The translations under genes and the position numbers were made by a program. Positions 837 to 57,700 of a stretch of DNA of 64,000 nucleotides are shown here, piece by piece; positions within the stretch are counted from its first letter, which is position 1; each line of letters opens with the position of its first letter. Source of the DNA: Romanomermis culicivorax. Its lineage: Eukaryota > Nematoda > Enoplea > Mermithida > Mermithidae. Below the pieces are notes generated by a model. That model worked only from the letters and a program-made list of their open reading frames with translations, did not search any database and was not told the origin of the DNA. The stretch lies in contig CAWUHX010000144.1 of NCBI GenBank assembly GCA_963922205.1, positions 682,001 to 746,000 of the forward strand, given 5' to 3'.

Positions 837-3800
837 GAATCCGAAGCTATTGCCATGCCAGCACACGTATTGCATGGAACCATGCTTGGACGGTTTGGTC
901 GATTTGGTCAAGAATACGGTCAAATGCCCGGAATGTCGCGCCGAACACGCAGTGCCATTCGACGGCGTCCGCCAATTCCAAACCAACTATTCACTTATGG
1001 GGTTTTTGGAAATTCATATACAAGCTACGGAAGAAAATGCCGCTGATTTAGAATCCTACATAAGAAAGTCAGTATATTTTTTTTGTTGAGCCATTCATGA
1101 ACTAGGCATGAGATTTTGAGGTGTGTACTGCTAGGAAACCGTAAAAATTAGAAAGTTTATTTGTCACTTTTGCGCTTCACATGGAAAAATTACTGTCAGG
1201 CGAAGCGATCTATAGTTCGCGATTTTTGGTCTATCCCAATTGAGCGATTCCCAATCGAGCGATTCCCATGTGAGCGATTCCCAATTGAGCGAATTCCCAT
1301 GTGAGCAATTGAGCGATTCCCGATTGAGCGAATTCCCAAACGAGCGAGTTCTCAATTGAGCGATTCCAAACGAGCAATAGAGAACGCAATAATATTTTCT
1401 TCACATTTTCCTTCTTTACCTTATATTTTTCTTTATATATATTTCTTTTTTATTTAGTTCTGTGTGTTGCAATTATGTTTTCGTTTATGTATGTTTTAAC
1501 ATTTTTATCTTTTGTCTCTGCTTTTTTCATTTTGTTTTTTCTTGTCATCTACTTTTTTCTTTTTGCTCATGAAACAATACATTACAAGTTGTCATTTTTA
1601 ATAAGCATTGTCTCTCATGTAATTGTTATACAATTCGGCACGCTCTATTTCCTATTTAATTTTATCCTTTGTGATTTTTTCTTCATTCGTATTTACTTTT
1701 CATCTTAGTTTTTTGCTTTTACTTCTTTTTTTTATCTTTTTCTATTCTCCCGATTCTTTCTTTCCTCGTTCTTTTTCACATTATTTTTTCTTTCTTCCTT
1801 GCTGCTTTCTCTATCTTGCTTTTTCTTTCTTGTCACTTTTTTCATGTTTTTTTTCTAATGCTTTTCCATCTATTTTCACATATTCTTAATGTCTCCATTT
1901 TTGTTGACGTTTCCTTTCTCTTGATGTTTTCTTTTTTCCTACATTCTTTGTTTATGTTTTTATGAAGATTTTCACACTTACAACGATTAATGACTCAAGC
2001 ATGTCGAAATGTTCAAGAATTATTCGGGCGACTACGGTTATCTAAAATGACAACTTGTAATGTATTGTATCATGAGCAAAAACAGAAAAATAGATGACAA
2101 GAAAGAAGAATATGAAAGAAAGCACAGCCAAAAGATGAAAACGTAAAAACATACATAAACGAAAACATTAGCAATACACACAGAAAACGAAAGTAAAAAG
2201 AAATACGTACAATGAAACATATAAGGTAAAGAAGGAAAATTTGAAGAAAGTAATATTACATTCTCGATCACTCGTTTGGAATCGCCCAATTGGGAATTCG
2301 CTTATGTGGTAGTTCGCTCAGTTGGGAATCGCTCACATGGGAATCGCTCACATGGGAATCGCTCGCTTGAGAATACTCCACGAATTTTCATCTCAAGAAT
2401 AATGGTTATGTGGAAATGATTGGAAATTTTGAGAATTTTAGGGGCAGGTAATAAGTTCTCTGATGTACCATTCAAACACCTTTTTTTTGACGAATCGGCA
2501 TAAATTGAAAGTTCCACAGTACCCACCCTTCATTGATAGGATGATTCATAAGTTATTCCACTTGGTCAAAGTAGGAACTACGTTGTGAATTTTGACGCTA
2601 CTAATTAGAATTTCTACGATTATTTTTTACCCTAATCAGCATTCGGAAATGGTTTGGAGCTCCTCAATATGATCAGAATTTAGAAAAATCAGGTGTAACG
2701 GAAAACAGTTAAATTTCATTTGAAAATTTCCTTCACTTCTTGACTTCACTTACTTACAGTAAACCATTTTATTTTGGTGTCAATCCATTGCATCATTATC
2801 CAACATTTTAATGAGTAGCGAATACAGTCGATTTTACTTTCTCTATTAACCGTAACGAAAATTAGCTTTTTGCAGTATTTCAGTTAGCAGTTTTTTCGCC
2901 CTTTTTTAAAGATTTTATTGAATTTGTTGAAATTCGTCACTAATAAGGCTTAACACAAACTAAACTAATGGTTCTACGTTAGAAATTGATAGCTACCTTT
3001 GATGTTGGAAGACTGGTTGTTATAATAAAATAAATTGAAATAAAGTAAAATGAGAAAACTTGGGAAATAATATGAAATAAATTGAACCATACTCTGTTTG
3101 GGACCGTTTCAAGAGAAAGGACTATAAATTAATATTATAAAAATGGAAAAAATGACCAAAAGCATAATTTCTACTCAAAGTTTACGGGTAAATAAAGAGA
3201 TAGCATACATTTATAGTACCGTATAGGGAGTGCATTTTAGCTCAAGATAGTTAAAAAATAGATTAGTACTTGCTTCCCAGTTTCATTATTTACACGCATT
3301 TGGAGAAAAAAACTGAAGTATCTTCGTATGTATTTAGTTATTCTGCATACGTGTTACACAGGTGGGATTTTGCCCTCGTGAAACAAGAGAACATCTGCAG
3401 AAAATTTGAACTTGATACGAGTTTTCCAATTAATATCCTATAGCACAAAGAAATGTGTCAGCGGATCATGCAGCGATGAACCTTTTGAGCTATAGCGATA
3501 TCCTGTTTTTATTTTATTTTTTATTTTTTAGGTACAATTTGCAAAGATGCAAAGTCTGCGACGAAAAAACCGAAGTTGATCTTTGCCAACACTGCGACAA
3601 AAAAATCTGCTCCGAATGCAAATCCACTCACATCGACATGCTAAAGCGGGATCTGTCGCGCCTGATGAACCAAGTGAAACGCATAGCCGGTCGTTTATCC
3701 GAATCGAATGAAAATTTGCATAAAAATACCGAATCGTTCGTACAAAATTGCGAAACGGTTAAAGAAGAAGTGAAAGATCACGTCAGTCGTTTCATCAAAG

Positions 3801-6295: not shown

Positions 6296-6330
<35 letters not shown>

Positions 6331-9300: not shown

Positions 9301-12300
9301 GAAGTTTTTAGGGTGACGATCCAAAGCTTAAAAGTTCGATTTTAGACCTAAAAAGTGGCACGTCGATGTTTTTTGAGAACTAGAATGAAGTGAGTCAGGG
9401 GTGAAGCACATTTTTAAACTAAAAGGTAGGTTCATGAGACTTCTCAAGGGAAAGTGCTTCATCCCTCAGATCCGAGCTGCATTCCTCGGACCCGTGTTGC
9501 TATGCGAATTTATAGTTTTAAGGAGGGAAATTTTTCTCTACACTGATTCAGCGTGCAAGGAGCTTTTCCATTCGTTCCGAATTCCTTGAAAGATTTGTAA
9601 AGTTCATATTTTCATTGATTCATTCCAGGCCCCAATCTATCTATTGAATTTTTAACTATTTCAAAAATTTAAATTCTTATATTTTCTGCAAAGATACTTC
9701 AAAATCACTTCCACTTAGATCTATAGTGTTTTTCTTGAAATGGTTTTATCAAATAAAATTGGAAATTAATTTTTTCCTATTTATATGATTTTTTGCTCGA
9801 ATACATTTCATATGGGACTGGAACTTTGTCAGCCAATTCCGCAACTAGTCCTCCTTTTCTTATGTACAAACATTCATGGTAGGCGCTTTTTGTAAACGAT
9901 TTTGACGACAGTATTAATAATGTCATTTTTAGTTTGATAGCATTCAATAAAAACATTCTTTAATCTTAAGTTTTTTTTCAGATCTAGAACCAATCCTGAA
10001 TTGAGCTCCGAATCCGTCGAACGCCCTACACTCAAAGAGAACATTGCTGTTGAGAACAGAAATCTCGGCTGCTCCAAAATTGGAACGAAGATCGCCGTCG
10101 ATCGACGATCCAGTCAAGATTCTAATACTAACTTGCATGCATTCGGTCATCAGAAATTCGGTCGAGAGGTCGAACGAAGAAATCGGTAAGGCTCCCCTGA
10201 TTGTGCACGGAGAATATTCGTTATGTCTAATTACATAAGTCAGCTATCTCCAAGTCTCATGCAAGAAGATTTTTCGTATTGGTAATCAGATTCCTTCTGA
10301 ATGTGTCGTGTCGTCTATTGCGCTTGATTCTTTAGAAAGATTAGTTTCCTATCTTTAATTTCTGATCTCAACTGTTTAGGATAAAAAATCCCATTCTGAA
10401 ATTGTACACTAGATAGACAGATGAAGAAAAACAAATAAAAGAGATGGATTGTAAATGAAAAAAGTTTGCAAAAAACAAAAAATCCAAAAAGCCATAAAAA
10501 TTGAAAGATATATCTTTCAATTTTTTTTTTGATTTGACAACAAATAGTTTTTGATTTCAATCAACCTCCTATAAAGTCGTGATTTTTGAAGCCCTGTTTC
10601 TGGTCTATACTAGATCTGATCATTGATGGAAAAGGAATTTCATTCCGATCTGTGGGAGGGTTTTAACGAAAACTTGACTCTTAACATATGTTTCGTACAT
10701 ATCAAAAACGGAACTCGAATATAGTTTTTGGCCAGATAATTATTTTCATCCGGAGAATAGAAGCAATACAAACCTTGACTTATGTATAATCTACCAACCA
10801 ATAAGGCATGGAAAAATCAGCATTTCGTCGAGGCAAAGCTGACGTCCTTCTCTTCGTCTTGCTATAAAAAGTTCTACTTCTAAGGTCATACGTAATTTTG
10901 TGGCCTCAACCAGTCAGACTACGCTGATAAAAATACGAATAAGCCAAAAAATTATTTTTTCAGTTATACACTGTTTGAATGTTCTTCCAAGCACATGAGG
11001 ATTTTTTCCACAAAACTAATTTCGAGACATAACATCTCAGATATTCAAAAAAACTGAAAGGCGTTTCTAGTAGTGGAGAATCGGATATCAATCTTTAGCT
11101 GTTATCGTGATGTATAAAAGAAACGTCATCCAAAAGGATGATGCCTCCGTTTCGAATCAAACGGTCACTTGAGCGACCATTGGTCACATGGACGACCTCC
11201 ATCAACTTTTATTCATATCTATACTTGTTATTGGTCATCTTTTATCAAGATTCATCCTAGTGACCAGTGATCACATCCTGGCAGTTCCATTCTAAACTTT
11301 TCCGACATGGGTCTCCAAATACCCATCTTGTTGTAGCATGGTTCCGTGTGCGACCCGACCGGATCCAATATTGCATTCAATCTAACCCGAAAGAATTGCA
11401 TTCAACCAACAACTTCTGTATCCGTTCCGCATCCTACCTGAAAATTCAAATAGATCCGGCAAACGTCGGTTCTTAATTTTAGCCGCAATATACGGGGTTG
11501 TATCCAGATTTTTCAGGATATCCAGCTCTAGATTTTACTTCATATTTTGACATCCATTTTTAAAATAAGCGCACAATTTAGTCAGGTTTCACGATCAGCA
11601 TTATATCGTATTAAACAACAAATGCGGTTCCCGTTTCGTGTTTTAACACCTTCAAACAAACTCCCCTTTCTAGATACAAACGCAAAGCCGATAAAAGTCA
11701 CTCCATATTTGGCCATTCCCACCACGCTGCCGCCGACGAGGAATCATTCGTCAACGCTCTTCACCGTTCCGATTCCGGTTCCAACAACATCCCGAGCAAC
11801 GGCAGCGGGTCCAACATGGCCGCTCCCGGAGCCAAATTTTATCGTCATTTGACTTATACGTCAAAAATCGATTATACGGACAAAGGCCGTCTGCATTTAA
11901 AATTCGGGTGCAAAGGCAGTTCGACCGGTCAGTTCAATTGGCCTCGAGGCGTCTGGTTGATGCCGGCCACTGGCGAAGTTGCCGTATGCGATTCCAGCAA
12001 CCACCGATTGCAAATTTTCGACCGTAGAGGAAATTTTCTGAAGACGATAGGCAGTTATGGTGAGCTGAAAAATGAAGAGGAGACGAAAAAGAGAAGTCAA
12101 GTACAATTCTCAAAAATTAAATGTATTTATTTTTACTGCTTACTGTAGTCTTATGGACCATAAGATTAAAGTATATCATGCAAAGCATAACTGAAAAATG
12201 AAAATGTCCAAATAATACACGTACTTATTTCGGTAAACATTTGAAAATTTCGAAAAACTTTTCATGTTCTTGCGCATTTTCACATTTTACAGGAAATTCC

Positions 12301-14917: not shown

Positions 14918-15990
14918 CTGCGGAATACGATAAGGGCCACTTGAAAAAGATCGTTACCACATGAAAAAATTTATTATCACTTGAAAAAAAATCGTTACTC
15001 CGCAATGTTTTTTTCAAGATGTATCCCACAAACGTCAAAAAGTTTTTTGATATTCAACTTTCTTAAGAAGTGCATTGCAATTTCTTCAAGTGCATCGCAT
15101 TTTTTCAAGATGAAAAAAATGAAAAATGCATCTTGAAGAAAAGATGGGCTGCACATCAAAGAATGAAAATTCCTGAAACTAGCCAATCAACGGTGTTGCC
15201 CCGCCTCCTACGTCAACAAGTATCCTTCAAAGTGGATTTCTGAGGTCAGGGCTTGCTAATGGAAGGAAACTTTGGTTTTTATGGAGAGCGGCAAAAAGGG
15301 AAAATGTGATTTTTCATGGGAAATCCTATGGACGTATTGGTGTTTCATCAAAATTTGTATTTTCCGAGATTTTTCAGGAAACCGTCAGAAATGCCTATCC
15401 AGAATGCAGTAATTCCTTAAAAACGATCTAAACTTTAGACTTCGTAAGCTGCTTTACGGCCATTCTCCACCTGCTCAGGAAGTCGACAAGAAAACGAAAA
15501 TTTGGATTCTTTTCCAAAATTACTACATTTTGACTGAAAAACAAGCGATTTTGACGTTTTTCTGAAATATCGGAAAATAAAGTTGTTTTTTTCATGAAAA
15601 ACCAACATGTATATCGGATTCCCATCGGATTAACCTCCCCACTCTGATACCTCCTCTAAAAACCAAGATTTTTTAGAGATGTGATTTGATTTTTTCAAAA
15701 TTTGACATTGATTTTTTCCACGATGACATCTTGATTTTTTTAAAGATTGGATATTGACTGTTTCAAGATGGGATGCGATGCACTTGAAGAAATTTTTGAT
15801 GTACTTGAAAAGAAGTTGAACATCGAAAAACTCTTACATCATGATGTTTCAGCGATATATCTTGACATTTTTACGATGCATTTTGAAAAAACGTTGTGCA
15901 TCATGTCTGAGAGTAACATCTGTTTCAATTGGTAACAAATTTTTTCAAGTCACTATGCTTTTTTTAAAAGGCCGTCCTCGTATTTCGTAA
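14918..15990. mobile_element. Foldback element O (TTTTTCAAGATGCATC iterons)
   Basis: Inverted arms at about 14918-15180 and 15655-15990. Ends are CTGCGGAATACGATAAGG at left and the diverged complement (CCTCGTATTTCGTAA) at right. Arms are built of repeated CTTGAAAAA-ATCGTTACC and TTTTTTCAAGATGCAT units in both orientations. Flanking 8-mers GCTAGTTC (14910-14917) and GCTATTTC (15991-15998) match at 7 of 8. The interior holds no recognisable protein. Confidence 0.7.
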
Positions 15991-22764: not shown

Positions 22765-23715
22765 TGTGCTGACTTCCATAACTTTCAAATGGATGAAGCT
22801 TTTTTAATGCGGATTGTTGCATTAGAATTAGTGATGTTCGTCGAATATCCGTATAACCGGGTATCCGGACTGATATCCATACTTTCGGATATCCAGATAT
22901 GAAAAAATATTCGGATATCCGGACATCCGAGCTTTTTATGGAAAACTTTTTATCCAAATCACAAATAAAAATAGTAAGGTCAAAGCACCAAATAGATTCG
23001 TTGAACAAGCGATAGTGAAATGAAATCAAACAAATTTTTAGATGACATAAATGCGAAGTGATCAACTAAAAAAGTTGAGAGTTGATGATAAGAATGTTAT
23101 GCTCTTATTGACAAACTTACAGTTTTTATATCTTTATTTTCGGTTTATCCTCTCTTGTAGTTGACATTTTCTGCTTGTTTTTTAGATATTCTGATTTCCT
23201 CCATCTGACTGCATTAAGATTACCATTTCTCAGGTGAAATGAATTACTCAGAGAACCTATACTAGTGACTTTTTTCAAGTGTCTGCCTTTGCGGACTCAT
23301 TGGAATTTATTCAATCCCATTCGAAAAACAGTCTGCTGTGTATGTAATAAATTTTCAGCACATTCAGTTCAAAACATAAATAATTTTCCATTATGTTGTC
23401 TCGTGTAATTCTTAGATAGTACTTAAAATTTTTTAGTAAGAAACTGAGATAAACAAAAGGATCAGCGGTTTCAAGTTTATCCATCGCATTATACAAATTT
23501 CATCTATATTCTATTCTGTTTGCTTTGGCAGATTTTTGTAATTTTGTGTAACTATATTCTTTTCTCTTTTTAATTATTTTTTCGTCGATCTAACGACGGA
23601 ATGCACTCTAAAATTTATAAATTAGTTTTTCTACCATTGCAGATGGTAAAATACAAGGCGTTGCGTTACGACGGGCACCAAGTTGTGGTACAACCGACTG
23701 GACCTAGCGAACACG

Positions 23716-24860
23716 ATACAGTATTACTTTTGTGCCCATCTCACTTTGGCGCCCGTCACAATTTTGGCGCCCAACGTTATAGGCGCCAAAGTAAGACTGT
23801 TGTCTTAACTTGGCGCCCGTCTTACTTTGGCGCACATCTTACTTTGTCGCCCACTGTTTAGTATTGACTTTTCTTGGATGTCTTAACTTGGCGCCCATCT
23901 TACTTTGGCTCCCGTCTCAATTTGGCGCCCTGTCTTAATCTGCTTTTCAGCACCCATGCAAATTATTTATTTAAGTAAGAAGCGATTACCAAATTTACAA
24001 GATCATAGATCAGTAGAAGTCGCTTTGCAATGGCCCTGAAATATCACGTGTTTCTGCTATAGCTCTTAATGTAATATAAAGATTTGAAACAAATTGAAAA
24101 CGGCTCAGAAATTCGCAGACTATAAGAGGAATATTACAGTAACGCGAACGATCAGGCCCCAAACGTGCTAGTTTTTGGAAAAAAGGAAAAAAGGAAGGAA
24201 GACAGAGAAGGAAAAAAAACTACATAGAAAGAAAAAAGTACAAAACAGAAACTGAAATGCAAAAAAAGAAAAATTAAAACTAAAAACTAAAACGTAAGAA
24301 GAAAGTGGAAACAAGGAGCGGAAACATGAAACAAATATTTTGCAAGATTGGAGAAAATTAACAGAGTGGAAAATGAGCGAGTTAAAAAAAATTAAAACGT
24401 AAAACAAAATAGAACAAAACAAAACAAAGATGGAAGAATAGAGAATAAGAAAAGAAAAAACAAATATGTAAAAATGAGAGCTGAAATACGAATATAAGAT
24501 AATAAGGGGAACGATGGATAAAATGCACGGAAAAAATGTATGGAAACAAATGAGGGGGAAACAGTGAAGAAATGTGATACAGAAACAGTGAAGAAATGTG
24601 ATACAGTTGTCACACCACGTGTTGATTAAATGATTTAAATTAATATAAAGATAATTAGCACGAAATACAACAGTTTATTAGAAGGTATTCCAGCAAACTA
24701 CATAAATCTTTACAGGAAAGTATTGTTGATATTTTATAGCTAATGCAAAATGCAAAATGTAAAACTGCTCGTAAAACTTGCATAGATAAAAACGCACATA
24801 TTTGGCGCCAAAGTGAGACGGGCGCTGAAGTGACACGGGCGCCAAGTTGGGACACAATTC
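23716..24860. mobile_element. Foldback element C (GGCGCC-AAAGTAAGAC iterons)
   Basis: The left arm (about 23735-23940) has at least seven units of the form GGCGCCCGTCTTACTTT. The right arm (about 24790-24860) has the inverse (GGCGCCAAAGTGAGACGG). Between them lies a ~430-bp purine-biased tract of A and G runs (24175-24610). Possible target duplication CGAACACG (23708-23715) / CAAACACG (24861-24868), 7 of 8. Ends are not sharply inverted, so exact borders are uncertain. It is nested in element B. Confidence 0.6.
24564..24606. repeat. Tandem duplication of ~21 bp
   Basis: Two adjacent copies of AGTGAAGAAATGTGATACAG separated by a couple of bases, inside the purine-rich interior of element C. 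Confidence 0.8.
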
Positions 24861-26559
24861 CAAACACGGGCATAGTTTTTTCTTATTTACACTTGTAGCT
24901 TCTTTGAGCTTTTTTAGGTTTTCCACAAAGGTGAAAGCAAAAGTCGGCCGTCAAGAATAAAAAGGTGCCTTCTGGTGCATTTTAGAAAGTCAAAATCTTT
25001 AAATTTTACAGCGCTGTGCGCTGAATTTTGACATAGTTAACATGATTAATTTGAATCTAGCTCGAGCGCGGCTCTCAGGAAGTCAAGTACCGTTTCTCCA
25101 TGACTAACAAAATCACAATCAACAATGTTCTCTGACCATTGATATTCAACATTTAGTTTCTGATTCTAACTTTTCTAATGATTTTATTCTTATCTTTCCT
25201 CACTCGATAAGGAAATTTGAAATAGGAAAATTTTCAACAGCTTTTATCATCAGTGATGACATCAAAAAACATTTTAAAAGCTTAGTTTTCATGAAATTTT
25301 AAAACAGTGAACACAAATCGATTTTGTCACTCTTCAAAAACCGGGATATCCGTATGTCAAAAAATAACCGAGGAACATCACTAATTAGAATCCCTTATTT
25401 GTCTTTGTTGAAAGGGACAAGTTTTATACTCCTCACATAAACAGAAATTTCATAAAAGTGGTCATTATTCAAAAAGTAGAAGTTGTGAAATCAAAGTAAA
25501 GGTTGTCCTACTGTGAAAAATAAAGTTGTTTACACACAAAAATAATTTGAAAATCACCTTGTAATTTTCTTGTAATTTACACGTTTCAATAGGAACAAAA
25601 TTTCGCCAAAATCAAGAGCTTTTGTTTTGAAATTAGAAAAAAAGAAAAATCAATTCTGCCAATGTCCGGTTGGCAAAAACGGTTAAAATTAGTGGTTAGC
25701 AGAAAGGATGACACATTGAAACGGCTCTTTTGTGGTTTTCAGCTGTTATATGGTACCTACGATTAGATCTATTTTATTTTTTTCTGTTATAAATTATGTT
25801 GATTTTTGTCGACGTTTAGTATTTTTGATTCTAGTCAATCAATTGAATAATGGGACTGAAACTGTAATTTTATGCCAGTCGTTTTGTCTAGCAACGGCAG
25901 CAAACTGCATTGAAAAAGCTTAATCCATTCGAAAGCTATGGAAGTCAGCACCGATCGTTTTTTGGATCAGCCTGTATACCCAATGTCGTACTTCCAGAAC
26001 AATATTGACATCAAAACTCGCCATATTCTTCTCCTTATGATTCCAGCCATTTCGAAGAAAAGCGGATTGTCATTTTCACTCATTAATTCAATGCTTGTCC
26101 AGTGAGGTCTAAAATGAATATTGAGAAGATCGTCGGTGGAGCAGGGTCTCTTTACATTGATAGATGTACTGCTAGCCTACAGGATGGTACTTTTTCCTAT
26201 TCATTTCTTGAAAGATAAACACATAAATCGTATGAGCTCATGCACAAGTACTATGATTGCCAGCCCGCACTTGTTTGCCAATTAATTATGAAGTAAACTG
26301 AATATATCAGCCTCTGAAATTCTTAAAATTTCCCAAATAAAATTCTATGAAATATTAAGATTACGAATCTTCATCAAACTATCTTTTGTTTTGGCTCTTC
26401 CACAGTAACTTTTTAAGAGCGTGCAATTGTCGATTGTATCCCGTTACTCCAAGTAATGCTATAAATTCTTTTACTCCAAGTAATGTAATTTTTTGCAAAA
26501 AAGGGCGTGCATTCCAACAATGCTATTTGAATCTTCTAAAATTTCCCTCGGATACTTTA

Positions 26560-26900
26560 ACACTTCAAAACTACAACTTAGACAAACACTTGAGCAAAAC
26601 ACAGAAAGCAAAAGAAAAAGAAATACAAAGAAAAGTGTGAGACAAAGAATGAACAGCATGAACATAAACTAAAACATAAACAAAGACAAAAGAAAAATAA
26701 TGGTTAAAAAAGAAAAAGATAAGAAATAAAGGAAATGAAGAAAACTGAAGAAAAAATAAAATGAGGAGAAAAGCAATTTGGCGCCGAAACAGCCGGCGCC
26801 AGCACCCAAATGACCCAGTGCTGAACTGGCTGGCGCCCAAACAGCGGCGCCGAAGTGTAGCGCCGAAATGGCGGCATCGAAACGTGCTTTCCGTACTTTG
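26560..26900. repeat. Solo arm of a GGCGCCGAAAC-type foldback element
   Basis: A ~200-bp purine-biased tract (A/G/C with few T) followed by an array of GGCGCCGAAACAG-type units (26776-26890). Order and composition match the right half of 53536-54083. No opposite arm was found nearby, so this is probably a remnant. Confidence 0.55.
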
Positions 26901-27039
26901 CATGGAGTTTACATTAGTCTGTCTTTAGAGAAATCGTTGTGCAATGATGAAAATTGAGAACCAAGCATATAATAATTTGATTATATTACTTCTCCAAAAA
27001 AATAAAGCACCCTGACCTTTTGATGCAACATGAGTGCAG

Positions 27040-27180
27040 GACATTGCTCATATTTTCCCCTGTAGCGCACTTTGTAACATACATCTTTATATACATTATA
27101 GCCATTTGGACATGCTATCGAACAATGCGTATTGTGTTTACACCATTTGCACACCGTACATGTAATGGAGCCCCGAGGTC
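27040..27180 (-). other. Short Cys-rich open frame, possible orphan exon
   Basis: The minus strand reads an uninterrupted Cys-rich segment: CTVCKWC, then HCSIACPNGYNVY, DVCYKV and EQCPAL, followed by a GTCAGG donor-like sequence after CATCAAAAG. The spacing of about seven cysteines and the aromatic residues look like a small extracellular or zinc-binding module, but I do not recognise the family. It lies inside transposon D and has no flanking exons, so it may be captured host sequence or chance. Confidence 0.25.
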
Positions 27181-28689
27181 TGGGGGGGGTCAGGCGATTT
27201 TTTTGGGTCGGGGTCATTGATTACCCACAATTTTAGGGGAGGAGTCCTTGAAGATAAAAAAATTCGATTTTTTGACCAAAAAAGTCAAAAAACGGTTTTA
27301 AAAACGGTAAAAAATATATTTATGGCGCGAAGCACCGAGAAAATTGACGTTTTTGACCATTTTTTGCTCAAAAATTGGCATTTTTCATCGAAAAATCGAC
27401 GTTATTCACGATTTTTCCGACCGAAAATTTTTGGGGTCCCAATGACTACCATATGGCTATATGAATTGGAAAATCCTGAGGGGATCGCACACTGGCTAGC
27501 CATATGGCCGACGATTTCTGAGGGAGTTCCAATAGCACTTCCATCCAATTACATCTAATGTTGCACACTATATTTGCATCACGGTGTAACCTCAAAGAAT
27601 CATTTTTTGAGTATGGTTCAGAATATTGTCATAATCTTTTGAACCGCTTGCAGTTTAGTGCAAAGCAAAGAGACGTGGATGGACTATAAGGTGGTGCGTA
27701 AAAGTTAGTGGGAAACCAAGGGATGCAACAGTGCTGGAAGTTTTGTGCAATAAAAACTTTCACAAAACTACTTTAAAAAGTCAAATCATCTGCATTTTGT
27801 CACAATTTTGTAATAAATTTTTAATTGTCAAAAAATTATTTTTAAAATTAGCTATAGGTCTAATGAGAATAATTATACATATAGTTACCGTGTAATGTTC
27901 ATTACAGATCATTTAAATTACAAAATAATAACTTCAACTATGAGTTGAAAAATTTTCATCATTTTATAAAAGAAAATTTTCGGTAAAAAACTGCAACAAC
28001 TTTTGAACACCTGCTTTCACTCTGTTGTCTGAATAAAAGTGCCAATCAGAGAGAGTTTTAGAATGGCAAAAATCATTTAGGCGAGCTATTGTATCATAGA
28101 CTTGAATCTGCATATTGAAATACTTTTAAATGATTACCTGCAAAATGATCATTTCAATCCTATTGCAATTTTAAAAATTTACAGCATTCTTGGAGTAACT
28201 GGGCACTTAGTGTAACGAGACTCTCGGAGTAAAGGGACACATGTCTATTAAAATCACAGAAATTTAATTTTTGAAGCACCCTGGAGTTTTTAACTTTGAT
28301 TGTTAGACAGAATGAATATCGCCACGAATCTTAGCACCCAAAACTACAGAATATCAAATTTTCAAAAGCATTTTTTAAATGACCTACTAAGGAAGGTCGA
28401 TCTTTTTAGAGACTGTCTTATGATTTGTGGAGTATAATCAGAAAATAACAATTCGAAATTTCAAGAATTTGAATTTGTTTGTCAAGAATGCAAAATCTCA
28501 AATTTACTACTGAAGCTTCTGTTATTGAAATTGATTCGGAGCTATATTAATTTCTACCAGATTGAAGTTTTTACTCACTCATGTAAAACGTCCGCAACAG
28601 ATTTTGAACTGAATAAAAACTAGTGTTAAAAATACTACAGTATTTGTATAGATAATTCAGCATGCTTTATACCGCGATATTACCAGTGT

Positions 28690-29822
28690 AGTTCCACCCT
28701 TTTTAGCGAAACACACAACAGCGAAACACAAAATAGCGGAAATCAATACAGCGATTCTCAAAACAGTGAAGTTTCAAAACAGCGATTCTCATTGCAGCGA
28801 AGTCTCAATGCAGCGATTCTCACAACAGCGGAGTCTCAGAACAGCGATTCTCAATACAACGAAGTCTCAATACAGCGATTCTCAAAAAAGCGAAGTCTTA
28901 GAACAGATTCTCAAAATGGCGAATTTTCAAAAATGTTATTTTTAGAATGGAAGAATGGAGATTGGACGGGTAGACGTTTTGGTGCATGTTTGGTCCTCGA
29001 TTTCGGTTCGGTGGATGCTGGCTGTCAGACATTTTGGCACGAATCGCCATATTTCTGACATTATAGCTCTATAGCATGTGTTTTCACGACACTACAGCTT
29101 TGTATTTTGGTTTGTTTATTATTAACTTATCTACACGCATGCTTTTTCTTTTTTCTTTTATTGACTTATTACCTTTTATATTCTTATTTTGAGCAACTTT
29201 TTGTTCTTTTTGTTTAATTTTTTCAGTTTGTGTACTTTGTTGTATTTTTTACCTAATTTTTATTACATTATTTTACTTTTCGTTTCTTTATTATTTGTTT
29301 TTTGTTCTGTCTTTGCAGCTTAACTATTTTATTCATTTCATCTTATTTGCTTATTTCATTTTGTTTTATTTATTTCATTAATTTAATTTTTTGCAATTAA
29401 GCTCCATACAAAACAGTTTTAATGGGGAATCCTATAATAACTTTTTGCTTTTGTTTTTTACAAGCGTTTCGCAAAAATGTTTTTCTGACAGATATTTTTT
29501 TGTGATTTTGGAACGGTCCGTTCGTGCATACCTACCGCAACTGCAGCACAAAACTACAAAAACTACTAACAAAAACGATTTTATATGCCTAATTAGCATA
29601 TTTATAATGAAAATGATATGTGCACCTACTCTAATGCATAGAACTTTTCCGCTGTATTGAGATTCGCTCGTTTTAGAATCGCTGTTTTGAGACCTCGCTG
29701 TTTTGAGAATCGCTGTATTGAGATTTCCCTGTAATACGAATCGCTATATGGAGACTTCGCTGTAATGAGAAATGCTGTTTCGGGTATCGCTATTATGAGT
29801 TTCGCTATATTGGGGACACGCC
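28690..29822. mobile_element. Foldback element G (CAGCGATTCTCAAAA iterons)
   Basis: The left arm (28700-28915) is an array of ~15-bp units alternating CAGCGATTCTCAAAA and CAGCGAAGTCTCAAA. The right arm (29655-29815) is the inverse. The interior 28915-29130 is homologous to 50850-51060 in reverse orientation, so this and 50240-51168 are one family. A T-rich tract follows (29110-29400). The right terminus GGGGACACGCC matches the family end. The left terminus is diverged and no clear target duplication was found. Confidence 0.75.
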
Positions 29823-31427: not shown

Positions 31428-32106
31428 AGCTTTAGGGGAAGATCTCAATCACCCAACCTTTACAATGATTATCATGGAAAAATTTCTCAGTTCACTTCTG
31501 ACGGAGCTTGTTGCAGCTTAAGCTGTAGCTTAACTTTGTATCTTATACCATTATCGTTAAGGTGCAGCTCCGCTGCAGCTCAAATCATACACACAAAACA
31601 TATCGACAAAGTTAAGCTGTTGCTGAGCTGCAGCTTAACCTTGTATGTAATAAAATTGCCGTTAAGGTGCAGCTCAGCTGCATACAGCTTAACTTTCTTG
31701 ATATGTTTTGTGTGTATGAGTTAAGCTGCAGTTGAGCTGCATCAACAGCAATATTATAACATACAGAGTTAAGCTACAGCTTAAGCTGCAGCTCAGCTGG
31801 AGCCTAATTCTCTTTGATGTCTTTGATGAAACCGACCCCAGAGTTTTAGGGGAAAATCTCAATCACTCAACTTTTACAATGCGTGTCATGGAAAAATTGT
31901 CCAGTTTACTTTTAATCGAGCTTGGTAGGAAGAAATTACCCAGTGATGCTTGGGACACGAAACATCTTTTGAGTACCATGAGTAGTGTGATATCGCTTGG
32001 AGAAGAAACACACCAGATATCTTCTAGATCAAGCTATTCAAGAAATACAGACACACTTGATAGCTTCCAGCTCAAGCATCACTCCAAATTAGAGTATCTC
32101 TCCTAA
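31428..32106 (+). pseudogene. Bel/Pao-like gag fragment, duplicated and interrupted
   Basis: The plus strand at 31828-32106 reads LGENLNHSTFTMRVMEKLSS, then LIELGRKKLP, DAWDTKHLLSTM and a stop at 32104. This resembles the helical gag-like region (DUF1759) of Bel/Pao retroelements. A second partial copy of its first part lies at 31428-31515 (ALGEDLNHPTFTMIIMEKFL). Between the copies is the palindromic AGCTGCAGCTTAA array (31505-31805). No reverse transcriptase or LTR was identified. The family assignment rests on short motifs only. Confidence 0.4.
31505..31805. repeat. Palindromic AGCTGCAGCTTAAC array
   Basis: At least eight imperfect copies of GTTAAGCTGCAGCTCAGCTG in both orientations, together with an inverted pair of CACACAAAACATATC and GATATGTTTTGTGTG. 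The whole segment folds on itself. It sits between two partial copies of the gag-like fragment, so it either inserted with a large target duplication or accompanied a local duplication. Confidence 0.6.
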
Positions 32107-32322
32107 TCATCTGCCGACAAGCTCATCAAAATGGAATAGATCTCATTCACAAAAAACAGAAGATGCAATTTGCAATTTATCTGTTGTTTTTCCATTAAGA
32201 TTACCACTGTGCACATTTTGAGATATTTTCTGTGCCAACATTCTTTTCCACGAAACAAGCTTCATGTCCCCCGAGGTCTGTTGTATGCCCAAATCCACGT
32301 GACTAACGCATCAGAAAAATAG

Positions 32323-32395
32323 CACTCGGTGAGGGGCTCGAACCCTCGACCTTCTGCGTACAAGGCAGACGCGCTACCAACTGTGCTAACCGAGC
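32323..32395 (-). tRNA. tRNA-Thr(TGT)-like gene
   Basis: A 73-nt cloverleaf on the minus strand. The 7-bp acceptor stem is GCTCGGT with ACCGAGT. The D arm runs from TAGCACAGTTGG, which fits box A exactly, and has one A-C mismatch. The anticodon stem is TCTGC/GCAGA with loop CTTGTAC, giving anticodon TGT with U33 and A37. The T arm is GAGGG-TTCGAGC-CCCTC and contains a perfect box B GGTTCGAGCCC. A run of five T follows within six bases of the 3' end, as expected for a Pol III terminator. It is flanked by inverted E-box-like palindromes ATCCACGTG / CACGTGGAT. Because the whole ~195-bp unit is tandemly repeated, it could instead be the head of a tRNA-derived SINE. Confidence 0.65.
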
Positions 32396-33299: not shown

Positions 33300-33880
33300 A
33301 ATTTTTTGCAGTTTCAATTGAACCTTTAGCTTCATCAGGACTTTTGGGGTGTAGAAGTTTTCGAATGATGGGGATTCAATGGACGCGGTCACTTTACACA
33401 AAAAATTATCTCGGGTGTGAACAAGCGTATTTTTCTGATTATTTGGGGCAAGGGGTCTTGGACCACAGCGAATTCAATGAATGCACTCACTTTACACAAA
33501 AAATTATGCTGGGTGTAAACAATCGTTTTTCATGATTGTTTGGTGGAAGGGGTTTTCGACCATGGGGAATTTATTGAATCCGATCACTTTACACAAAAAA
33601 TTATCCGAAATGTAAACTATTTTGGTGGAAGGTGTTTTCGACCACAGAGAATTCAATGGATGCGATCACTTTACACACAAAATTACTCTAAGCGTGAAAA
33701 ATGTATTTCTGCGATTTTTGGAGATGAGCTTTCTGGCCATGGGGAATTTAATGGACACAGTCACTTCACACAAAAAAATTGTTCAATGTGCAAACAAATG
33801 TTTTTCTGCGTTTTTTTGGGTTGAGGGGTTCTTGATCATGGGGAATTCAATGGAAATGGTCACTTTAAACACTTTTACCG
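33300..33880. repeat. Satellite of ~95-bp units, about six copies
   Basis: Diverged tandem units, each with the phrase CACTTTACACAAAAAATTA (around 33389, 33489, 33584, 33667, 33764 and 33859) preceded by a GGGGAATTCAATGGA-like phrase. Spacing varies from 83 to 100 bp. Short open frames across it are a by-product of the periodicity. Confidence 0.8.
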
Positions 33881-50117: not shown

Positions 50118-50239
50118 CTATGGTTCATAGATGTGGTTTCTTTTCGAAGCTTTTGTGATCTTGAGCGAAATTTTCCATTTTTGAACTTTTCTCAACTGCG
50201 ACAGATAACGCTTATTGTTATTCAACTTGTGAATTCCAG

Positions 50240-51168
50240 GGCGTATCCCCAATACAGCGAAACGCACAACAGCGAGACTCAAAACGGCGTTTCTCAAAAC
50301 AGCGATTCTTGATACAGCGAAATTTCAATACAGCGATTCTCAAAACAACGAAGTCTCAAAACGCAATTCTCAAAAGAGCGAACCTCAATACAGCGGATAG
50401 TAAAAAGTTCTGTGCATTACGGTAAATGTACACATCATTTTCATAATAAATATGCAAATTAAGTTACAAAAATCGTTTTTGCTAGTTGAGATAGTCTATT
50501 TTTAGTTGCATTTGGCCCTCTAAGTTTCACATGCTTTTGTGCTGCAGTTGCGGTAGGTATGCACGGACAGACCATACCAAAATCACAAATATTTGTCAGG
50601 AAAACATTTTTGCGGAACATTACGAAATCATTAAGCAGTAAAGGCAGAACAAAAAACAATTAATAAAGAAATGAAAAGTAAAATAATGTAATAAAAAATA
50701 GGCAAAAAATAGAACAAAAATACACAACCTGAAAAAATTAAACAAAAGGAACAAAAAGTGGCTCAAAATAAGAATATAAAAGAGAATAAGTCAATAAAGG
50801 AAAAAAAACAAAAAACATGCATGTATATATGTTAATAATAAACAAACCAGAATAAAAATCTTTGATGTCATGAAAACACACTGTAGAGCCATAAAGTCAG
50901 AAATCTGGCGATTGGGGCCAAAATGTGTGACAACCAGCATCCACCAGATCGAAATCGAGGACCAAATAGGCCATGTACCAAAACGTCTACCCCGGCCAAT
51001 CTCTATTTTTCCATTCTAAAGATAACTTTTTTGAAAATTCACCATTTTGAGAATCTGTTCTGAGACTTCGCTGTTTCGAGAATGAAAATCTCTGCTTTGA
51101 GACCGCTGTTTTGAGAATCGCTGTATCTATTCTCGCTATTTTGAGTTTCGCTGAATAGGGGTGAGGCC
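50240..51168. mobile_element. Foldback element H (CAGCGATTCTCAAAA iterons)
   Basis: Ends GGCGTATCCCC and GGGGTGAGGCC are imperfect inverted repeats. A perfect 8-bp target duplication AATTCCAG flanks them (50232-50239, 51169-51176). Arms consist of ~15-bp units CAGCGATTCTCAAAA and relatives (50255-50400; inverse at 51050-51155). The interior has a purine-biased tract (50640-50820) and a ~210-bp core shared, in reverse orientation, with element G at 28915-29130. Confidence 0.9.
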
Positions 51169-51709
51169 AATTCCAGAACATCAAATCAAAAAGATCATAG
51201 GAATAATGGGCCTGGGTATCGATTGCCTATTTTAAAAAATCATGAGCCGATTAATCACATTTCGATATAATGCTGACTCAAAGCACATGTTTCATTTTCA
51301 AATCCGTAGTGTCAAACGAAAAGCGAGAGCTCCCAATCGAACATTCATTGTAAATGTAAAAATTCATTCCAAATAATAAAAAAAAGTTATTCGAATTTTA
51401 CGGACACACTACATAAGAGGAAACGTGTAGATTCATAAGAGTTATGCTATATCCACGGGCAATACGGAAGTAGAGCTAAAATCAGAGTTGAATACTACAT
51501 TCACAGAAAATTGATTCCAGGAAATAAAAGGTCAAAAATGCGATCAGCTGCAAAGCCGAAAAAAAACAATATAATCATGAGTTTTACTCAAATCTCAATC
51601 TGATACACAGAAACTATAGTAATTTTTGATTTTAGACTGCAAAAAAACCAACAAAACATTAATCAAAATGGAAAATTAAAATCTTATGCGAAGCGATTAA
51701 ACCAAATTA

Positions 51710-54700
51710 TTAGAACGATAAACTAATATTCGTCTCGAGCCATTGTTGTAGAAATTTGATCGAATCGACTAAAGTTTGTTGATTGGAAGTCTAGAGAATA
51801 AATTTGCTGGAATTTTGAAATATAAACTTGTGAAGAAAACTCACTTTTATCACCATAAGTATTTTGTTCCAGTCAACTTTGTTGGCTACTTTGTTTGAAT
51901 TATCAAATGTTTTCTTGGCGTCCAAAACGGGGTATCCTGTAAAATGTTATATAGGATGAACAAAATTTCCGCGCTGCTGAGACTGCGTACTACTGTAGAT
52001 TACATTTATGCATGTTTTATTGTAAATATTGATATGTACAAAAATGATTAGTATAACATTACTTGCGTGCCAATAGGCTATTGAATGCACTGTACAATGT
52101 AAATATTTGGTGTTTACATCTTGAATTTTCATACAGTAGGTTCTTCAGTGTAGACTCTATTTTGAGAATATATTAAACCTTTAAGACAAAACTTTGATGA
52201 TATGACAATTTGTTGAATAGCCGGGCGACTTCATTGGAAAAGTCAAGCTTCAATTTTTGAACCAAGTTCTTTGTTTTGGATATATTTCATCAGCACGTTG
52301 TTTATAGAAGACTGCAATCATAATACCAATCTAATTAAAAAATACATTGACGACGAATATATAAGTCAGCTCTAATCATAGTGCAAAAGCGATTGGTTAA
52401 AAACTCGATATTCAGGTCAGGACAGTCATCTGTAACGAACACCCGCGAATCAATAAAGGAATCATCGATTTTTATCATTTGGCTATTATTCCTGCATTTA
52501 AATCTCAGAGTAGCAGCCTTCGACACATTTATTTTTGCTGTATACTGCATATTTACCTGTAACAATGCAAGGCTGGCATAGATTTCCGTCATCATTCAAC
52601 AGAGAAGCTTCGTAAACGCCACGCGAGTCTTTTAATAAAGTTCTTTCTAGTTGTTTGTCGACGCTGATCGCCAAGACCCATTCTTTGACCTCATCGTGTT
52701 CTTCTTCCTGACAATTCAAAGCATATGAAGGTCAACAAAATCATGTATATCATCACAAGAATGAAAATGTTTTGAAGAAAGCGGAGAAAAGAACAACGTA
52801 AAGGAAGAATAGTGGCATTCGAAAAAAGCATACAAATCAATCAAAAACATACATATATCTGTGTAATTTGGAATTTATACAAAAATTAAAATCATACTAT
52901 CGAGAAGATGTGATTTCAAAATAAATTTTTTGCTTTTTTAAGATATTTCCAACGTGTTTCAAGAGAAGTAAACAAAGTTACTTTAAAATATTGGACTTGA
53001 AGTTATATCCTTGAGAAAATAAGAATCTATATTTTAGAATTATTCGACATTATAGTTAAGCTTCGATCAATATCTCGAACGATTTAGAACAATTCCCTAG
53101 CGGATGTGTGAATATTCAGGAAGTTCCGTCGGTTTGCTAAAACTTCATTTAAAGTTTTTCAAGATTCTAACATATGCAAATATTTTTCAGTATCACTTCT
53201 CCATTTTTGGAGATTTATCAGAAAGCTTTCAACCCGTCAAAATAATTTTTACCGTTAAATGTAACGCTGTCGGCAGCAAAATTTCGTGCGGAATATCCGT
53301 ATTATCGAAATCTGCGTAGTCGACAAGATCGGGATTTTGTTCTTCGATGGCTTCGGCCAAATCCAAATAATGATTGAGAAAGACGAATGCCATATTTTCG
53401 TATTTACCCCCATAATTCTAAAAAATGTATAAAACGTTGCATGACTTGCAGTAAAAATATAAAGTCAGGAATTGGCATCTGATTTTCAGCCAGTAGAAAG
53501 AAATTGCACCATGAATTAAATATCCCAATATGCCGGTCACCGGGTCATTTCGGCACAAGCCAATTCGGCGCTTGATTTAATTTTCATAAGCAAAAACATA
53601 ACAATAAAGTATCAGCATTATTTCCGTAGTTATTTTCAGAGGTTTTAATAAACGAAAGAATAAATATACTAGTAATAAGAGAAAGAAAAAAAGAGGCGGA
53701 AAAACAGTTGAAAAAAAAAACAAAAAACGGTTGCAGAAAAGGAAAAAAAGTTTTCTCTAAAAATGTAGAAAATGCTACAGAAAGCGTTTGCTTGAGTGCA
53801 ACAATAAAAAGCTAGTTAGGTAAGGCACTTTTATTTTCATCATGCCTGGTTTCATTAGCGAAACGAAAGGTAATAAGGAAAAACATAAACAAAAACAAGC
53901 CAGACTAAAAAAAGAAACACAAAGAAAAATATCAGATAAAGAACGAATAAAATGAACAAGGTAAAGATAAAGGAAGAAAAAATTAAATAAAAGAAAGAAA
54001 ATTTGACGCCGAATTAGCTGGTGCCGAAACGGCGGCACCGAAGTGAGAGGGGCGAAATGGCGCCGCCGAAACGTCCCTTGCCACATAATAGAAAGTTTTC
54101 AACGACAATACTTGAATTTAAAAAAACACTTCACACTCATACCGAGAGACCATTGTTTATATATTTGGACAAACTTTCCCTATTTGTACATACAAAAGAC
54201 TGACTGAAACAAGGAGAAAAATTTAGTCGCTTATTTGTTTCAATTTCATTAGAATACTGACTTCGCTGCATTAAAATTCCTGAACGAGTCAGTAATCTAT
54301 GAAAATGGCTTTCCGACATGGAGATATAAAAAGTCTTTCTTTATGTGTCAGCAGAAATGTCAGTTTAGGACTTATGTAAAGACAGACAACTATAGTCTAT
54401 TTATTTAGAAACCGCAGATGCAGCGAAGCATTGGAAGTAGATTCAAATCGAGGAAATAGTAGGCTTATTACTGTAATTCATGATGAAAACTTCTCGTATA
54501 TCAGCGACAGACGGTTCTAGGACAATTCGCCCCCAGTAATTCGCCCCCACTGCAGTTCCCTTCCCCCGGACAATTGGCCCCTGAGCAATTCGCCCCCAGT
54601 AATTCGTCTCTGGTACTATACTTACCTGGTTTTAGATAAGCAACTCCATCATATGTTATATAATATATCTCCAGATTTTCTTTTTCCAGCTTCATTTCTT

Positions 54701-57700
54701 GTTTATTTTTTCGGGATCTATGGAGAGCAATGAAGATTGTGACAAAGTATTATAATTATTCTACGTGTGACTCTATCGTGTTCTTCACTATGTTTTTCGC
54801 GACAACTTTTCGGTGTACCAAAAATAGGAAAGAATAAAAATAGAAAAAACAGAAGAAAAATATAAAGGAAAAAAATCAGAAAAGAAGAATGAGTAAAATG
54901 TAATCAAAAAAATATAGAAGAAACTAAACAAGAAACATGAAAGACAAAAAAGAGGAATACAAGAAAAAAATTAAACGAAAAAAGGAACAAAAAACATAGA
55001 AAACAAATGCAGATCGAAGAACATAAATGACTCGCAATCCTGCCTATGATATCCGTGTTACAAATTATCTCCCAGGTATTCACGGCATCAGATAAATATT
55101 TGGCATTGTTTCTGGGAATTAGGACAGCATCATTACAAACTTGAAAAAATATGAATTTGTGAATTGCCAGTGTTGAGATTTTTCACAAATGTGGGGGCGA
55201 ATTACCAAGGGCGAATTGTGGGGGACGAATTGCTGGGGGCCAATTACTAGGGCGAATTGTGCGTATCCCGCGACAGACAGAACTACGAATAATTTTTCCA
55301 ACCTGACCAAATTCATCAAGATATCAGAAAGTTCTATCTAAATCAAAAATGAATAAGCTAGATGCTGTTCCTTTAATTTTCCTTACTTTTTAGTTTTAGT
55401 TTTAAACTCACTTTTGCCGATATTCCTGCTTCGTAGAAAGCCTTGTCGGCGGGTATAACGTCCGTGTAACGCAGCAAACTAATACTAATTTTTAAAGCGG
55501 AAAGTTGGAGATCGCTGTCATCCGTTATTTGCATAAACGCTGATCGCAACGAGTAATAGTACATAATTTCTAGGTACCTTTCGAATGTTATTTGATGTGA
55601 AACGTTGACGTTAGACTTTGAAGATTTCATTCGTTTACACTGGATAGGGAAAACATTATCAAACAGCTTTTTGAATCTACCATACTATCAAACAATGGAT
55701 TGAAAAAATCACTTGAAAGTCCAGGTTGTGACTGGAGTGGACGCCGTGGAAACTTGGAGAATAGTATCACATATTTCATGTCAAAATTTAAACGATTATA
55801 AATCGGTTCACAAAAATATTCAAAAATTGACAGCATCAGAGAATGTGAATTGTAGTGCACGTCACAATGCTCTCTATTGATCTATTTAAAAATCAACATG
55901 ATTTTTCGTGAAACGATTTTTTAACTACACACATAAAAAATATTTTAGGCTGTTGAAGCATCCCGTCGGAAAAATTAATAGTAAATTTTAATAAAAAATA
56001 TTGTATATCTCACTAAATCTAAAATGACCGACCGTATTTTTGACCAAAAAGCGTACGCGGCAGCTGTCATTTTCTCTTTAGCATTCAAGCATTCATATAC
56101 CAAACGTTTATAAATATTGAAATTCTGAAACCGTACATGCCAAAGTTTACATTTAAAAGAAATATCTTGATTGAAAACGCACTTGTTCGTTAGCAGCCGC
56201 TCCATATTTACAAAAAATGTCGATGGCACCGTCAATAGACTTTTCGTTGATGAGTTTCGTGGCGTACAGAGCGACGTATTTTTCCAAAAGTGCAATATTC
56301 TACAGAAATTCACAGAATAAAACTCTATGATATGATGAAAATTCCGAAGTTTCAAAAATTTCACTAATACCACTCCACTAAAATCAACATAAACGGAAAT
56401 AATGACGGGAAAAATTTGAAGACTAACAGACTTTTTGCTGCTTAGCCGCTTCTAACGCCTTGTCCCACTGATTTTTGTCTATGAACATTTGAATCGCCGA
56501 CAATACATCGACGCTAGCGAGCTAGCAACAAAAAAAAATGAATTTTTAAGTCAAATAGTTTCGACAGAAAAGTTACCTGATCGGCGTTTCCTTCGGCTTT
56601 CAAAAAATTCTTGTATTTATCGTCTACGTAATCGGCTAAATCACTAGATTCAGCGGCGATTGCCCTAGCTTTATTCCATTCTCGTCCGTTGATTAGGCAA
56701 TCGACCGCTTCCTGGAGGGCGTCGACCTTCAAATAATAATCTGCGGCCTAAAAAAGGTGAGATACATATACGAAATTTTATCAGAGAAGTAGAAATAGTA
56801 TATGAAGAAACTCTCATATCAAGAAAAAAATCTTTAAACCTTTGAAAACAAACACCTAATTAAAAAATCAACCAAAATCACATTATTACTCCCTACAGCA
56901 CAAAAAGACCTGTTCATCCAGAAGTAATCAATCATACGTACCAATTCGAATTTGTCGATGGTTGAAAAATTATATGCGATTTGCTTGATCAAATCAATTC
57001 GATCGCTGTCGACAAACTTACTGGCTAATTCATAAGCCTACGGACAGATTAGCGAATTATATTAGGCATAATAAAGAAACCAGACTTATTGGAACAAACC
57101 TTTCGCCAGGATCTTTCCATTAATTTTTCGTCTTCCGTCGCTGGACGATTAACTTTTAGATAGCAACCAATTGCCCGTTCAAATTCACCTTGATTTTCCC
57201 AGTCTTGTGCTTGGGCCAAAAATGAGTGAACACCCCTAAAAATCAAAATGCAACGTATACAAATAGAATTAAGTGTAAAGAGTAGAGTAATAGGCAATCT
57301 ATTTACTATCCAATTTTTCTCAGATTCGATCTTCAGAATCTAAAAATTCAATTTTCGGTTTTTTGAAAATTGAAAATTTCAAAGGACAAAAATTGATTCC
57401 TACCGTATGTAACTGAACTCGTAGCTTATCAATTTGAGTACAAAAAATGCGCAATATTGATTAATTTCTGTGACGACTATTACTTGGCACCGGATTTCAA
57501 CTGCTCGAGTTCATATTCTTCTTGCAATTGTGGCAGTAAATTTGGCAAATACTCTTTGCACACTCTAAGCGCATCCGACCACATTTTCAAATCCTATGAA
57601 AGAATTCAATAGAAAGAAAATCAAAAGTTAGAAGGTAAAGCTCACACCTTGTAAGATTTGACGATAATTTCGGGTTTGTGAGCGCGTAGCAAGTAAGATT

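What the first reader, a model, noticed from the sequence alone, without database searches (positions are those of the whole stretch)
1228..55270. A radiation of foldback elements with family-specific iterated arms and 8-bp target duplications
At least seven elements share one design although their arm sequences differ: short iterated units in inverted arms, an AT-rich interior and 8-bp duplications. Perfect duplications: ATTAGAAT (22829-25383), GTCTGCGC (44983-46133), AATTCCAG (50240-51168), CGACAGAC (54513-55270). Seven of eight: 1228-2380, 14918-15990, 26436-28241. Units include GAGCGATTCCCAATT, CAGCGATTCTCAAAA, AATTCGCCCCCAGT, GGCGCCAAAGTGAGACG, TTACTCCAAG and ATATCCGGA. Established: hAT elements make 8-bp duplications and their transposases bind subterminal repeats. 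Inference: these are hAT-like MITEs whose subterminal binding arrays have amplified and diverged, perhaps by co-evolution with different transposases. The first two units share GCGATTC-CAA, suggesting common ancestry.
Basis: partly seen in the sequence, partly recalled or inferred. Interest (0 to 1): 0.85.

Follow-up and report, generated by a model that had tools for sequence, protein, structure and literature searches.

The report
Foldback transposons, mostly Mutator-type, not hAT
This stretch of an unnamed 359-million-base genome carries several families of short mobile DNAs whose ends are built of repeated 14-17-letter words; most look like passengers of Mutator-type transposases, a known kind, and two look like hAT elements, so the find is real but largely ordinary.

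Summary
The iterated inverted arms are real, and the six elements searched as wholes are dispersed repeats (E3's outer part was not searched). They are not one hAT radiation. E7-like units, ends and a 9-bp duplication flank a gene with FLYWCH and MULE domains (Phantom-type). Three further MULE families carry other iterated units; two of them show 9-bp duplications. E1 shows 8- and 9-bp duplications (7 + 7 of 28). E3 and E5 differ: T/CAGTGATGT ends and 8-bp duplications, so hAT-like; the GGCGCC array belongs to a foldback nested in E3. E4 is probably MULE-like; E2 is unresolved. Closest published kin: Aedes Muta/Phantom MULEs and Meloidogyne Tm1. An E1-type end sits inside a hAT-like end at one shared junction at four loci, suggesting a re-amplified composite. 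New members of a known kind.

The parts
1228..2379 (+). E1: MULE-like foldback MITE, 15-bp unit GAGCGATTCCCAAGT; family ends GGTCTATTCCC and (other end) GGGGTATTCTC
   Evidence: flanks here GCGATTTTT / ACGAATTTT (7 of 9)
14918..15990 (+). E2: old repeat family, inverted ends TTACGGAATACG..GGGCC; superfamily unresolved
   Evidence: 7 of 8 duplication here, none in 4 other copies
22829..25383 (+). E3: hAT-like element, ends TAGTGATGTTC, duplication ATTAGAAT (22821-22828 / 25384-25391), with another element nested inside
   Evidence: outer part not searched in the genome
23731..24855 (.). N3: foldback nested in E3, 17-bp unit CTTACTTTGGCGCCCGT; own dispersed family; borders approximate (left 23714-23731, right 24855-24858); no duplication seen by eye
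26436..28241 (+). E4: probable MULE-like foldback, unit TGTCCCGTTACTCCAAG
   Evidence: weak 9-bp signal
27155..27560 (.). 406-bp insert nested in E4 with perfect 8-bp duplication TTGCACAC (27147-27154 / 27561-27568)
   Evidence: 31 other E4 copies (my count) run across the site with 5-13 bp overlap of the two BLAST pieces
28689..29822 (-).
   Evidence: C144:710705-711822; L042
44983..46133 (+). E5: hAT-like MITE, ends TAGTGATGTGCG / CAGTGATGTGCG, ATATCCGGA words, duplication GTCTGCGC (44975-44982 / 46134-46141)
50240..51168 (+). E6: MULE-like foldback MITE, 15-bp unit CAGCGATTCTCAAAA; family ends GGCGTGTCCCC and GGTTTCACCCC; duplication AATTCCAG (50232-50239 / 51169-51176)
54513..55269 (+). 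E7: Phantom-type MULE MITE, 14-bp unit CAATTCGCCCCCAG; family ends GGTTCTAGGACAATTCG and GGGATACGGACAATTCG; 9-bp duplication GCGACAGAC (54504-54512 / 55270-55278)

Best explanation
Most of the foldback elements (E7, E1, E6, E4b, probably E4 and the element nested in E3) are non-autonomous MITEs of Mutator-like (MULE) transposons of the Phantom/Muta type. Their arms are family-specific arrays of 14-17-bp units with asymmetric terminal motifs. A MULE transposase, in at least two families with a FLYWCH zinc finger, supplied by gene-bearing copies elsewhere in the genome, probably binds the repeated units, cuts at the ends and inserts with 8-9-bp staggered joins. Unit number then drifts by unequal exchange or slippage. 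E3 and E5 are a separate, hAT-like set with 8-bp duplications. Shown: unit arrays, ends, duplication lengths, and MULE reading frames between such arrays (with E7-like units for E7). Inferred: binding to the units, mobilisation in trans, array drift, and the placing of E1, E6, E4b, E4 and N3.
For: E7: 9 of 11 pairs (window copy included) have at most 1 mismatch at 9 bp, 8 perfect, 0 at 8 bp; mismatched partners 0 of 110. The ninth base differs between copies (G, A, C, T) yet matches on both sides in all nine, so it is not a fixed end base (pairs). MULE locus C60:967768-970044: inverted arrays of AATTCGTCCCCAAC, end GGGATATAGGAAAATTCGTCC, duplication AAAAAGACG 9/9, 368-aa frame with FLYWCH (E 5e-8) and MULE (E 1e-8). 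E7 ends match M4 and M1 ends in corresponding pairs in 0 of 400 shuffles, one pair 1 of 400 (whose printed label '2000' is wrong; 129 pairs, uncorrected). C90:372809 has such arrays on both sides, C175:710312 on the one side that my windows reached. M1 (unit GACAATTGGGTGAAC; L100, L107, L111, L112): MULE frames between inverted arrays, duplications 9/9, none, 9/9, 8/9 (MULE domain scanned by Pfam in L099, L100, L112, the rest). M3 (L110): 18-bp units on both sides, CGAAATAAT 9/9. M2 (L108, L109): MULE hit and array on one side; FLYWCH shown in L109. E1: 14 of 28 pairs with at most 1 mismatch, 7 at 8 bp and 7 at 9 bp, the mix published for Muta1 (PMC5225508). E1 and E6 end patterns: 411 and 477 sites at up to 1 mismatch, 0 for reversed patterns.
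Against: No MULE gene was found with E1 or E6 arms: 0 of 100 listed E1 ends (of 411) and 0 of 100 listed E6 ends (of 477) lie within 8 kb of the 122 MULE hits, 0.54 expected each. Outside that listing, one E6 copy (C333) lies about 2 kb from an M1 MULE hit and one E1 copy (C102) about 5 kb from the M3 hit, both as separate complete-looking neighbours. E6 duplications are 8 bp (6 of 24 with at most 1 mismatch, two of them copies of one flank), which alone does not separate MULE from hAT, and 2 listed E6 ends lie within 8 kb of a hAT domain (0.67 expected). In E1 the or 9 depends on where the G run of the end is placed. E4 signal is weak, E4b has no duplication, N3 none by eye, E2 is unresolved. 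9 of 22 MULE loci sampled, wholly or in part, showed no iterated arms.
Confidence: 0.83

Rival explanations
1. All seven are hAT MITEs whose subterminal transposase-binding arrays were amplified.
For: 8-bp duplications at E3, E5 and E6; hAT genes are abundant (150 hits among 150 scored of 1837 candidates); hAT transposases do bind subterminal repeats (Hermes, PMC10368747, passages); 2 of 100 listed E6 ends lie within 8 kb of a hAT domain (0.67 expected).
Against: E7 is 9 bp and E7-like arms flank a FLYWCH-MULE gene; E1 is mixed 8/9 bp; the ends GGTCTA, GGGGTATT and GGCGTGTCC are unlike the T/CAGTGATG ends of E3 and E5; 0 of 100 listed E1 ends near 150 hAT domains (0.67 expected).
Confidence: 0.06
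2. P-superfamily (Galileo-like) foldbacks: long internally repetitive inverted arms moved by a THAP-type P transposase.
For: Galileo shows that a foldback shape can arise in the P superfamily (PMC3688188, PMC4168063: start of abstracts in the listing).
Against: MULE frames, not P frames, were found between iterated arms here; but no P-type gene was searched for, so this is open for E1 and E6.
Confidence: 0.05
3. The arms are independent minisatellites and the duplications are chance.
For: Units differ between families; E2 and E4 duplications are weak.
Against: Fixed ends with duplications of one length, 0 of 110 (E7) and 0 of 42 (E5) mismatched partners as good, background rate 0.0013 or less for E1 and 0 for E6; the E1 and E6 end strings recur 411 and 477 times.
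Confidence: 0.01

Closest known systems
Muta MULEs of Aedes aegypti (Muta1, Muta5), placed in the Phantom family (PMC5225508: passages and Discussion; PMC6446971: passages)
   Same: 8-9-bp duplications, 9-15-bp subterminal tandem repeats inside long inverted repeats, separate terminal motif, many MITE derivatives with variable unit number; several families in one genome; Muta1 is called a type 2 Foldback element
   Different: other unit sequences; gene-bearing partners of E1 and E6 not found here; activity unknown
Tm1 of root-knot nematodes (PMC3169594: abstract, one Results section, first part of the Discussion)
   Same: Phantom-type MULE, arms of mostly 14-bp units, different terminal motifs A1 and A2 at the two ends, 9-bp duplications, MITE forms
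   Different: unit CGATTCAGTATCGC; low copy number; here several families with hundreds of end sites
Drosophila FB/NOF (recalled) and Rehavkus (table row in a passage of PMC6446971)
   Same: foldback or minisatellite features, 9-bp duplications, MULE-related transposase
   Different: Rehavkus carries a PHD finger in that table; here FLYWCH in two families
TU elements of sea urchin (recalled only; the papers listed by searches, which also asked for other terms, do not hold the term)
   Same: as recalled: outer arms of 15-bp repeats and 8-bp duplications
   Different: not compared
hAT elements such as Hermes (PMC10368747, passages)
   Same: E3 and E5: 8-bp duplications and repeated subterminal words
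   Different: no hAT gene found by E5-type ends (0 of 100 listed ends within 8 kb of 150 hits)

Membership tests
MULE / Phantom (for the E7 family) | transposase with MULE domain between arms of the same kind | tested here: met
   (C60 and C90 both sides; C175 one side). Arms about 80% identical to E7's, so a close relative, not the same family in the strict sense
MULE / Phantom (for the E7 family) | FLYWCH zinc finger | tested here: met
   C60 frame, 33.4 bits over cut-off 23.6
MULE / Phantom (for the E7 family) | 8-10-bp duplication | tested here: met
   9 bp in 9 of 11
MULE / Phantom (for E1) | 8-10-bp duplication | tested here: met
   7 at 8 bp and 7 at 9 bp of 28
MULE / Phantom (for E1 and E6) | transposase with MULE domain between the same arms | tested here: inconclusive
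   none near 100 of 411 and 100 of 477 ends
MULE / Phantom (for E6) | 8-10-bp duplication | tested here: met
   8 bp, 6 of 24 with at most 1 mismatch (two share one flank); also fits hAT
MULE / Phantom (for E4) | 8-10-bp duplication | tested here: inconclusive
   0.53 vs 0.31 at 9 bp, 9 pairs, 1 with at most 1 mismatch
hAT (for E3 and E5) | 8-bp duplication | tested here: met
   4 of 7 with at most 1 mismatch at 8 bp, 0 at 9 bp, 1 (C17) at 10 bp
hAT (for E3 and E5) | hAT transposase with dimerisation domain between the same ends | tested here: inconclusive
   0 of 100 listed ends (of 233) within 8 kb of 150 domain hits, 0.67 expected; 0 of 40 E5 copies
hAT (for E7) | 8-bp duplication | tested here: not met
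   0 of 11 at 8 bp, 9 of 11 at 9 bp
P superfamily (Galileo) | P/THAP transposase between the arms | not tested
   no search made

The most novel reading that the evidence does not exclude
One genome holds a set of Phantom-type MULE lineages in which each transposase reads its own 14-18-bp word, so that arms and zinc fingers have co-diverged like locks and keys. At the same time MULE foldbacks ride inside hAT MITEs and are amplified by the other superfamily's transposase, as the four E1-in-hAT loci with one shared junction suggest.
Probability: 0.3. Interest if true: 0.55.

Novelty: new member of a known kind. Interest (0 to 1): 0.33.

Why it matters
It replaces a single hAT story by two superfamilies told apart by duplication length, end motifs and, for E7, a linked transposase. 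It also offers a natural series (four MULE families 34-45% identical in the frames compared, with different unit words) for asking how a transposase and its binding array diverge together. The E1-in-hAT loci suggest that one superfamily amplified a foldback of another.

Tried and rejected
Tried without result: finding a MULE or hAT gene by E1 or E6 ends by crossing listed end sites with listed domain hits, and hAT genes by E5-type ends. Naming the host from a window reading frame did not work (3 hits without names). Duplications of E2 in 4 other copies: none. Shared unit words between families: E1-E6 (0.008), E7-M2 (0.014), E7-M4 (0.022) and E1-E4 (0.026) of 36 pairs fall under 0.05; none survives correction for 36. 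Rejected: one common hAT origin; arms as independent minisatellites. Rows dropped or doubtful: ends were placed by best match, so some of the 28 E1 pairs (L001, L016, L017, L022, L025 among them) probably lie inside the array; they were kept in n = 28. Six of 30 E6 loci had no end placed and were left out (n = 24). Two of 10 E4 copies (C107, C53) and one of 6 E5 copies (C133) were left out for the same reason. For six MULE loci only two 801-bp windows each were read, so absence of arrays in four of them is weak.
Full report
Setting. The relatives of one transposase that bear organism names in the list are from beetles and a springtail (120 of 292 listed), which does not identify the host.

The observation. 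Tandem arrays and inverted arms were confirmed. Six of the seven elements, and the repeat N3 nested in E3, have many relatives; only the best 40 candidates are scored per search, so these are lower bounds. E1: 40 scored of 2304, most near full length, 80-89% identity. E6: 40 of 1862, 77-86%. E7: 40 of 863, 86-91%. E4: 40 of 5205. E2: 40 of 1340, about 67-74% in the leading rows. E5: 40 of 2058. N3: 40 of 952. E3's outer part was not searched. End patterns with up to one mismatch occur 411 times (E1), 477 times (E6) and 233 times (E5 type), against none for the reversed patterns.

Duplication length. With ends placed by short strings, left and right flanks were compared for lengths 5-12 against mismatched partners. 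E7 (11 pairs, window included): 9 with at most one mismatch at 9 bp, 8 of them perfect; none at 8; background 0 of 110. Moving the right end by one base would make an 8-bp reading possible, but the base in question is G, A, C or T in different copies and matches across the element in all nine, so it belongs to the duplication. E1 (28 pairs): 7 at 8 bp and 7 at 9 bp, no locus in both sets by my reading of the printed pairs; background rates 0.0013 and 0; which of the two lengths is read depends on the G run of one end. E6 (24 pairs): 6 at 8 bp and 1 at 9; two of the six share one flank. E5 with E3 (7 pairs): 4 at 8 bp, 0 at 9, 1 at 10; C133, dropped because an end was not placed, reads 7 of 8 by eye. 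E4 (9 pairs): mean match 0.53 against 0.31 at 9 bp only, one pair with at most one mismatch. E2 (5 pairs): only the window copy, 7 of 8.

Linked transposases. Pfam searches of the genome gave 122 MULE hits (150 of 248 candidates scored) and 150 hAT dimerisation hits (150 of 1837 scored). I read 22 MULE loci, holding 23 of the 122 hits, wholly or in part. Seven have iterated inverted arrays on both sides (L100, L107, L110, L111, L112, C60, C90:372809); six have an array on the one side seen (L099, L106, L108, L109, C34:1076722, C175:710312); nine show none (L101-L105, C97:29383, C117:1000212, C129, C447), two of them with inverted ends without units (L103, L104). The sampling favoured high-scoring hits. 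Units: M1 GACAATTGGGTGAAC, M2 GCAATTGCTCGCCAA, M3 CACATCCGCAGCCTACTG, M4 ACAATTCGTCCCCA, plus a fifth array at C34. The frames compared from the four families are 34-45% identical in their best alignments. Duplications where both ends are seen: L100 CCCTCTGCC 9/9, L111 ATCAGAGTC 9/9, L112 8/9, L110 CGAAATAAT 9/9, C60 AAAAAGACG 9/9, C90 GATAAACT 8/8, L107 none (read by eye from the flanks printed). FLYWCH domains are found in M2 (L109) and M4 (C60); the M1 frame starts too late to show one, M3 has a weak RYYR-CCHC match below cut-off. Most listed relatives of M1 in public data carry FLYWCH + MULE (292 proteins at E up to 0.001, 120 listed).

E7 and its gene-bearing kin. The M4 element C60:967768-970044 has arms matching E7 arms (about 80% over 55-57 bp, E 6e-9 and 8e-8), a right end GGGATATAGGAAAATTCGTCC against E7's GGGATACGGACAATTCGCC, and a 9-bp duplication. 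E7 is therefore best read as a Phantom-type MULE MITE; whether M4, M1 or a partner not seen moved it is not shown.

E1 and E6. No linked gene was found. One E6 copy lies about 2 kb from an M1 MULE hit (L099) and one E1 copy about 5 kb from the M3 hit, as neighbours rather than arms. They are placed with MULEs by duplication length (E1), the asymmetric GG-ends and the shared design; E6 leans on its likeness to E1. This is inference.

E3 and E5. Ends T/CAGTGATGT and 8-bp duplications make them hAT-like; no hAT gene was linked. In a direct comparison E3 and E5 share only two stretches of about 40 bp of subterminal words. N3 is a separate family nested in E3: its other copies stop near the same borders and do not include the surrounding E3 sequence.

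Composite elements. Of 100 listed E5-type ends and 100 listed E1 ends, 5 pairs lie within 3 kb where 0.17 are expected, four of them 102-139 bp apart. In all four the sequence inward of the hAT-type end and its junction with the E1 end align, while the sequence outside the hAT-type end does not. Only this one junction was read. The simplest reading is one E1 insertion into a hAT MITE that was then amplified as a unit.

Comparison with print. Papers seen: PMC5225508 (passages and the Discussion; 8-9-bp duplications, 10 of 12 long-TIR families with 9-15-bp subterminal repeats), PMC3169594 (abstract, one section, first part of the Discussion), PMC6446971 (passages), PMC10368747 (passages); Galileo papers only in a listing. 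These make the design a known kind.

Change after checking: confidence in the best explanation was lowered from 0.85 to 0.83 and the hAT rival raised from 0.05 to 0.06, because the dependence of the E1 lengths on end placement had been left out.

Noticed in passing
C3:3227637, C121:119027, C142:316044, C99:242546 (loci L150-L153): E1-type end at one and the same junction inside a hAT-like end at four loci with different outer flanks: apparent re-amplified composite.
   Followed up: partly
27155-27560: 406-bp repeat inserted in E4 with perfect 8-bp duplication TTGCACAC; a 73%-identical copy lies beside a MULE in L107.
   Followed up: partly
37088-37825: Pentanucleotide array GAAAA, 148 copies, 99% matches.
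   Followed up: no
32322-32395: Predicted tRNA-Thr (anticodon tgt) on the minus strand.
   Followed up: no
11615-12145: Reading frame with one NHL repeat.
   Followed up: no
31512-31790: Nested inverted repeats with AGCTGCAGCT-like words.
   Followed up: no
33374-33605 and L100:4683-5458: A 97-bp tandem repeat in the window and a 98-bp one (7.9 copies) beside a MULE look alike by eye (TTCGACCAC.. ATTCAATGAATG..).
   Followed up: no
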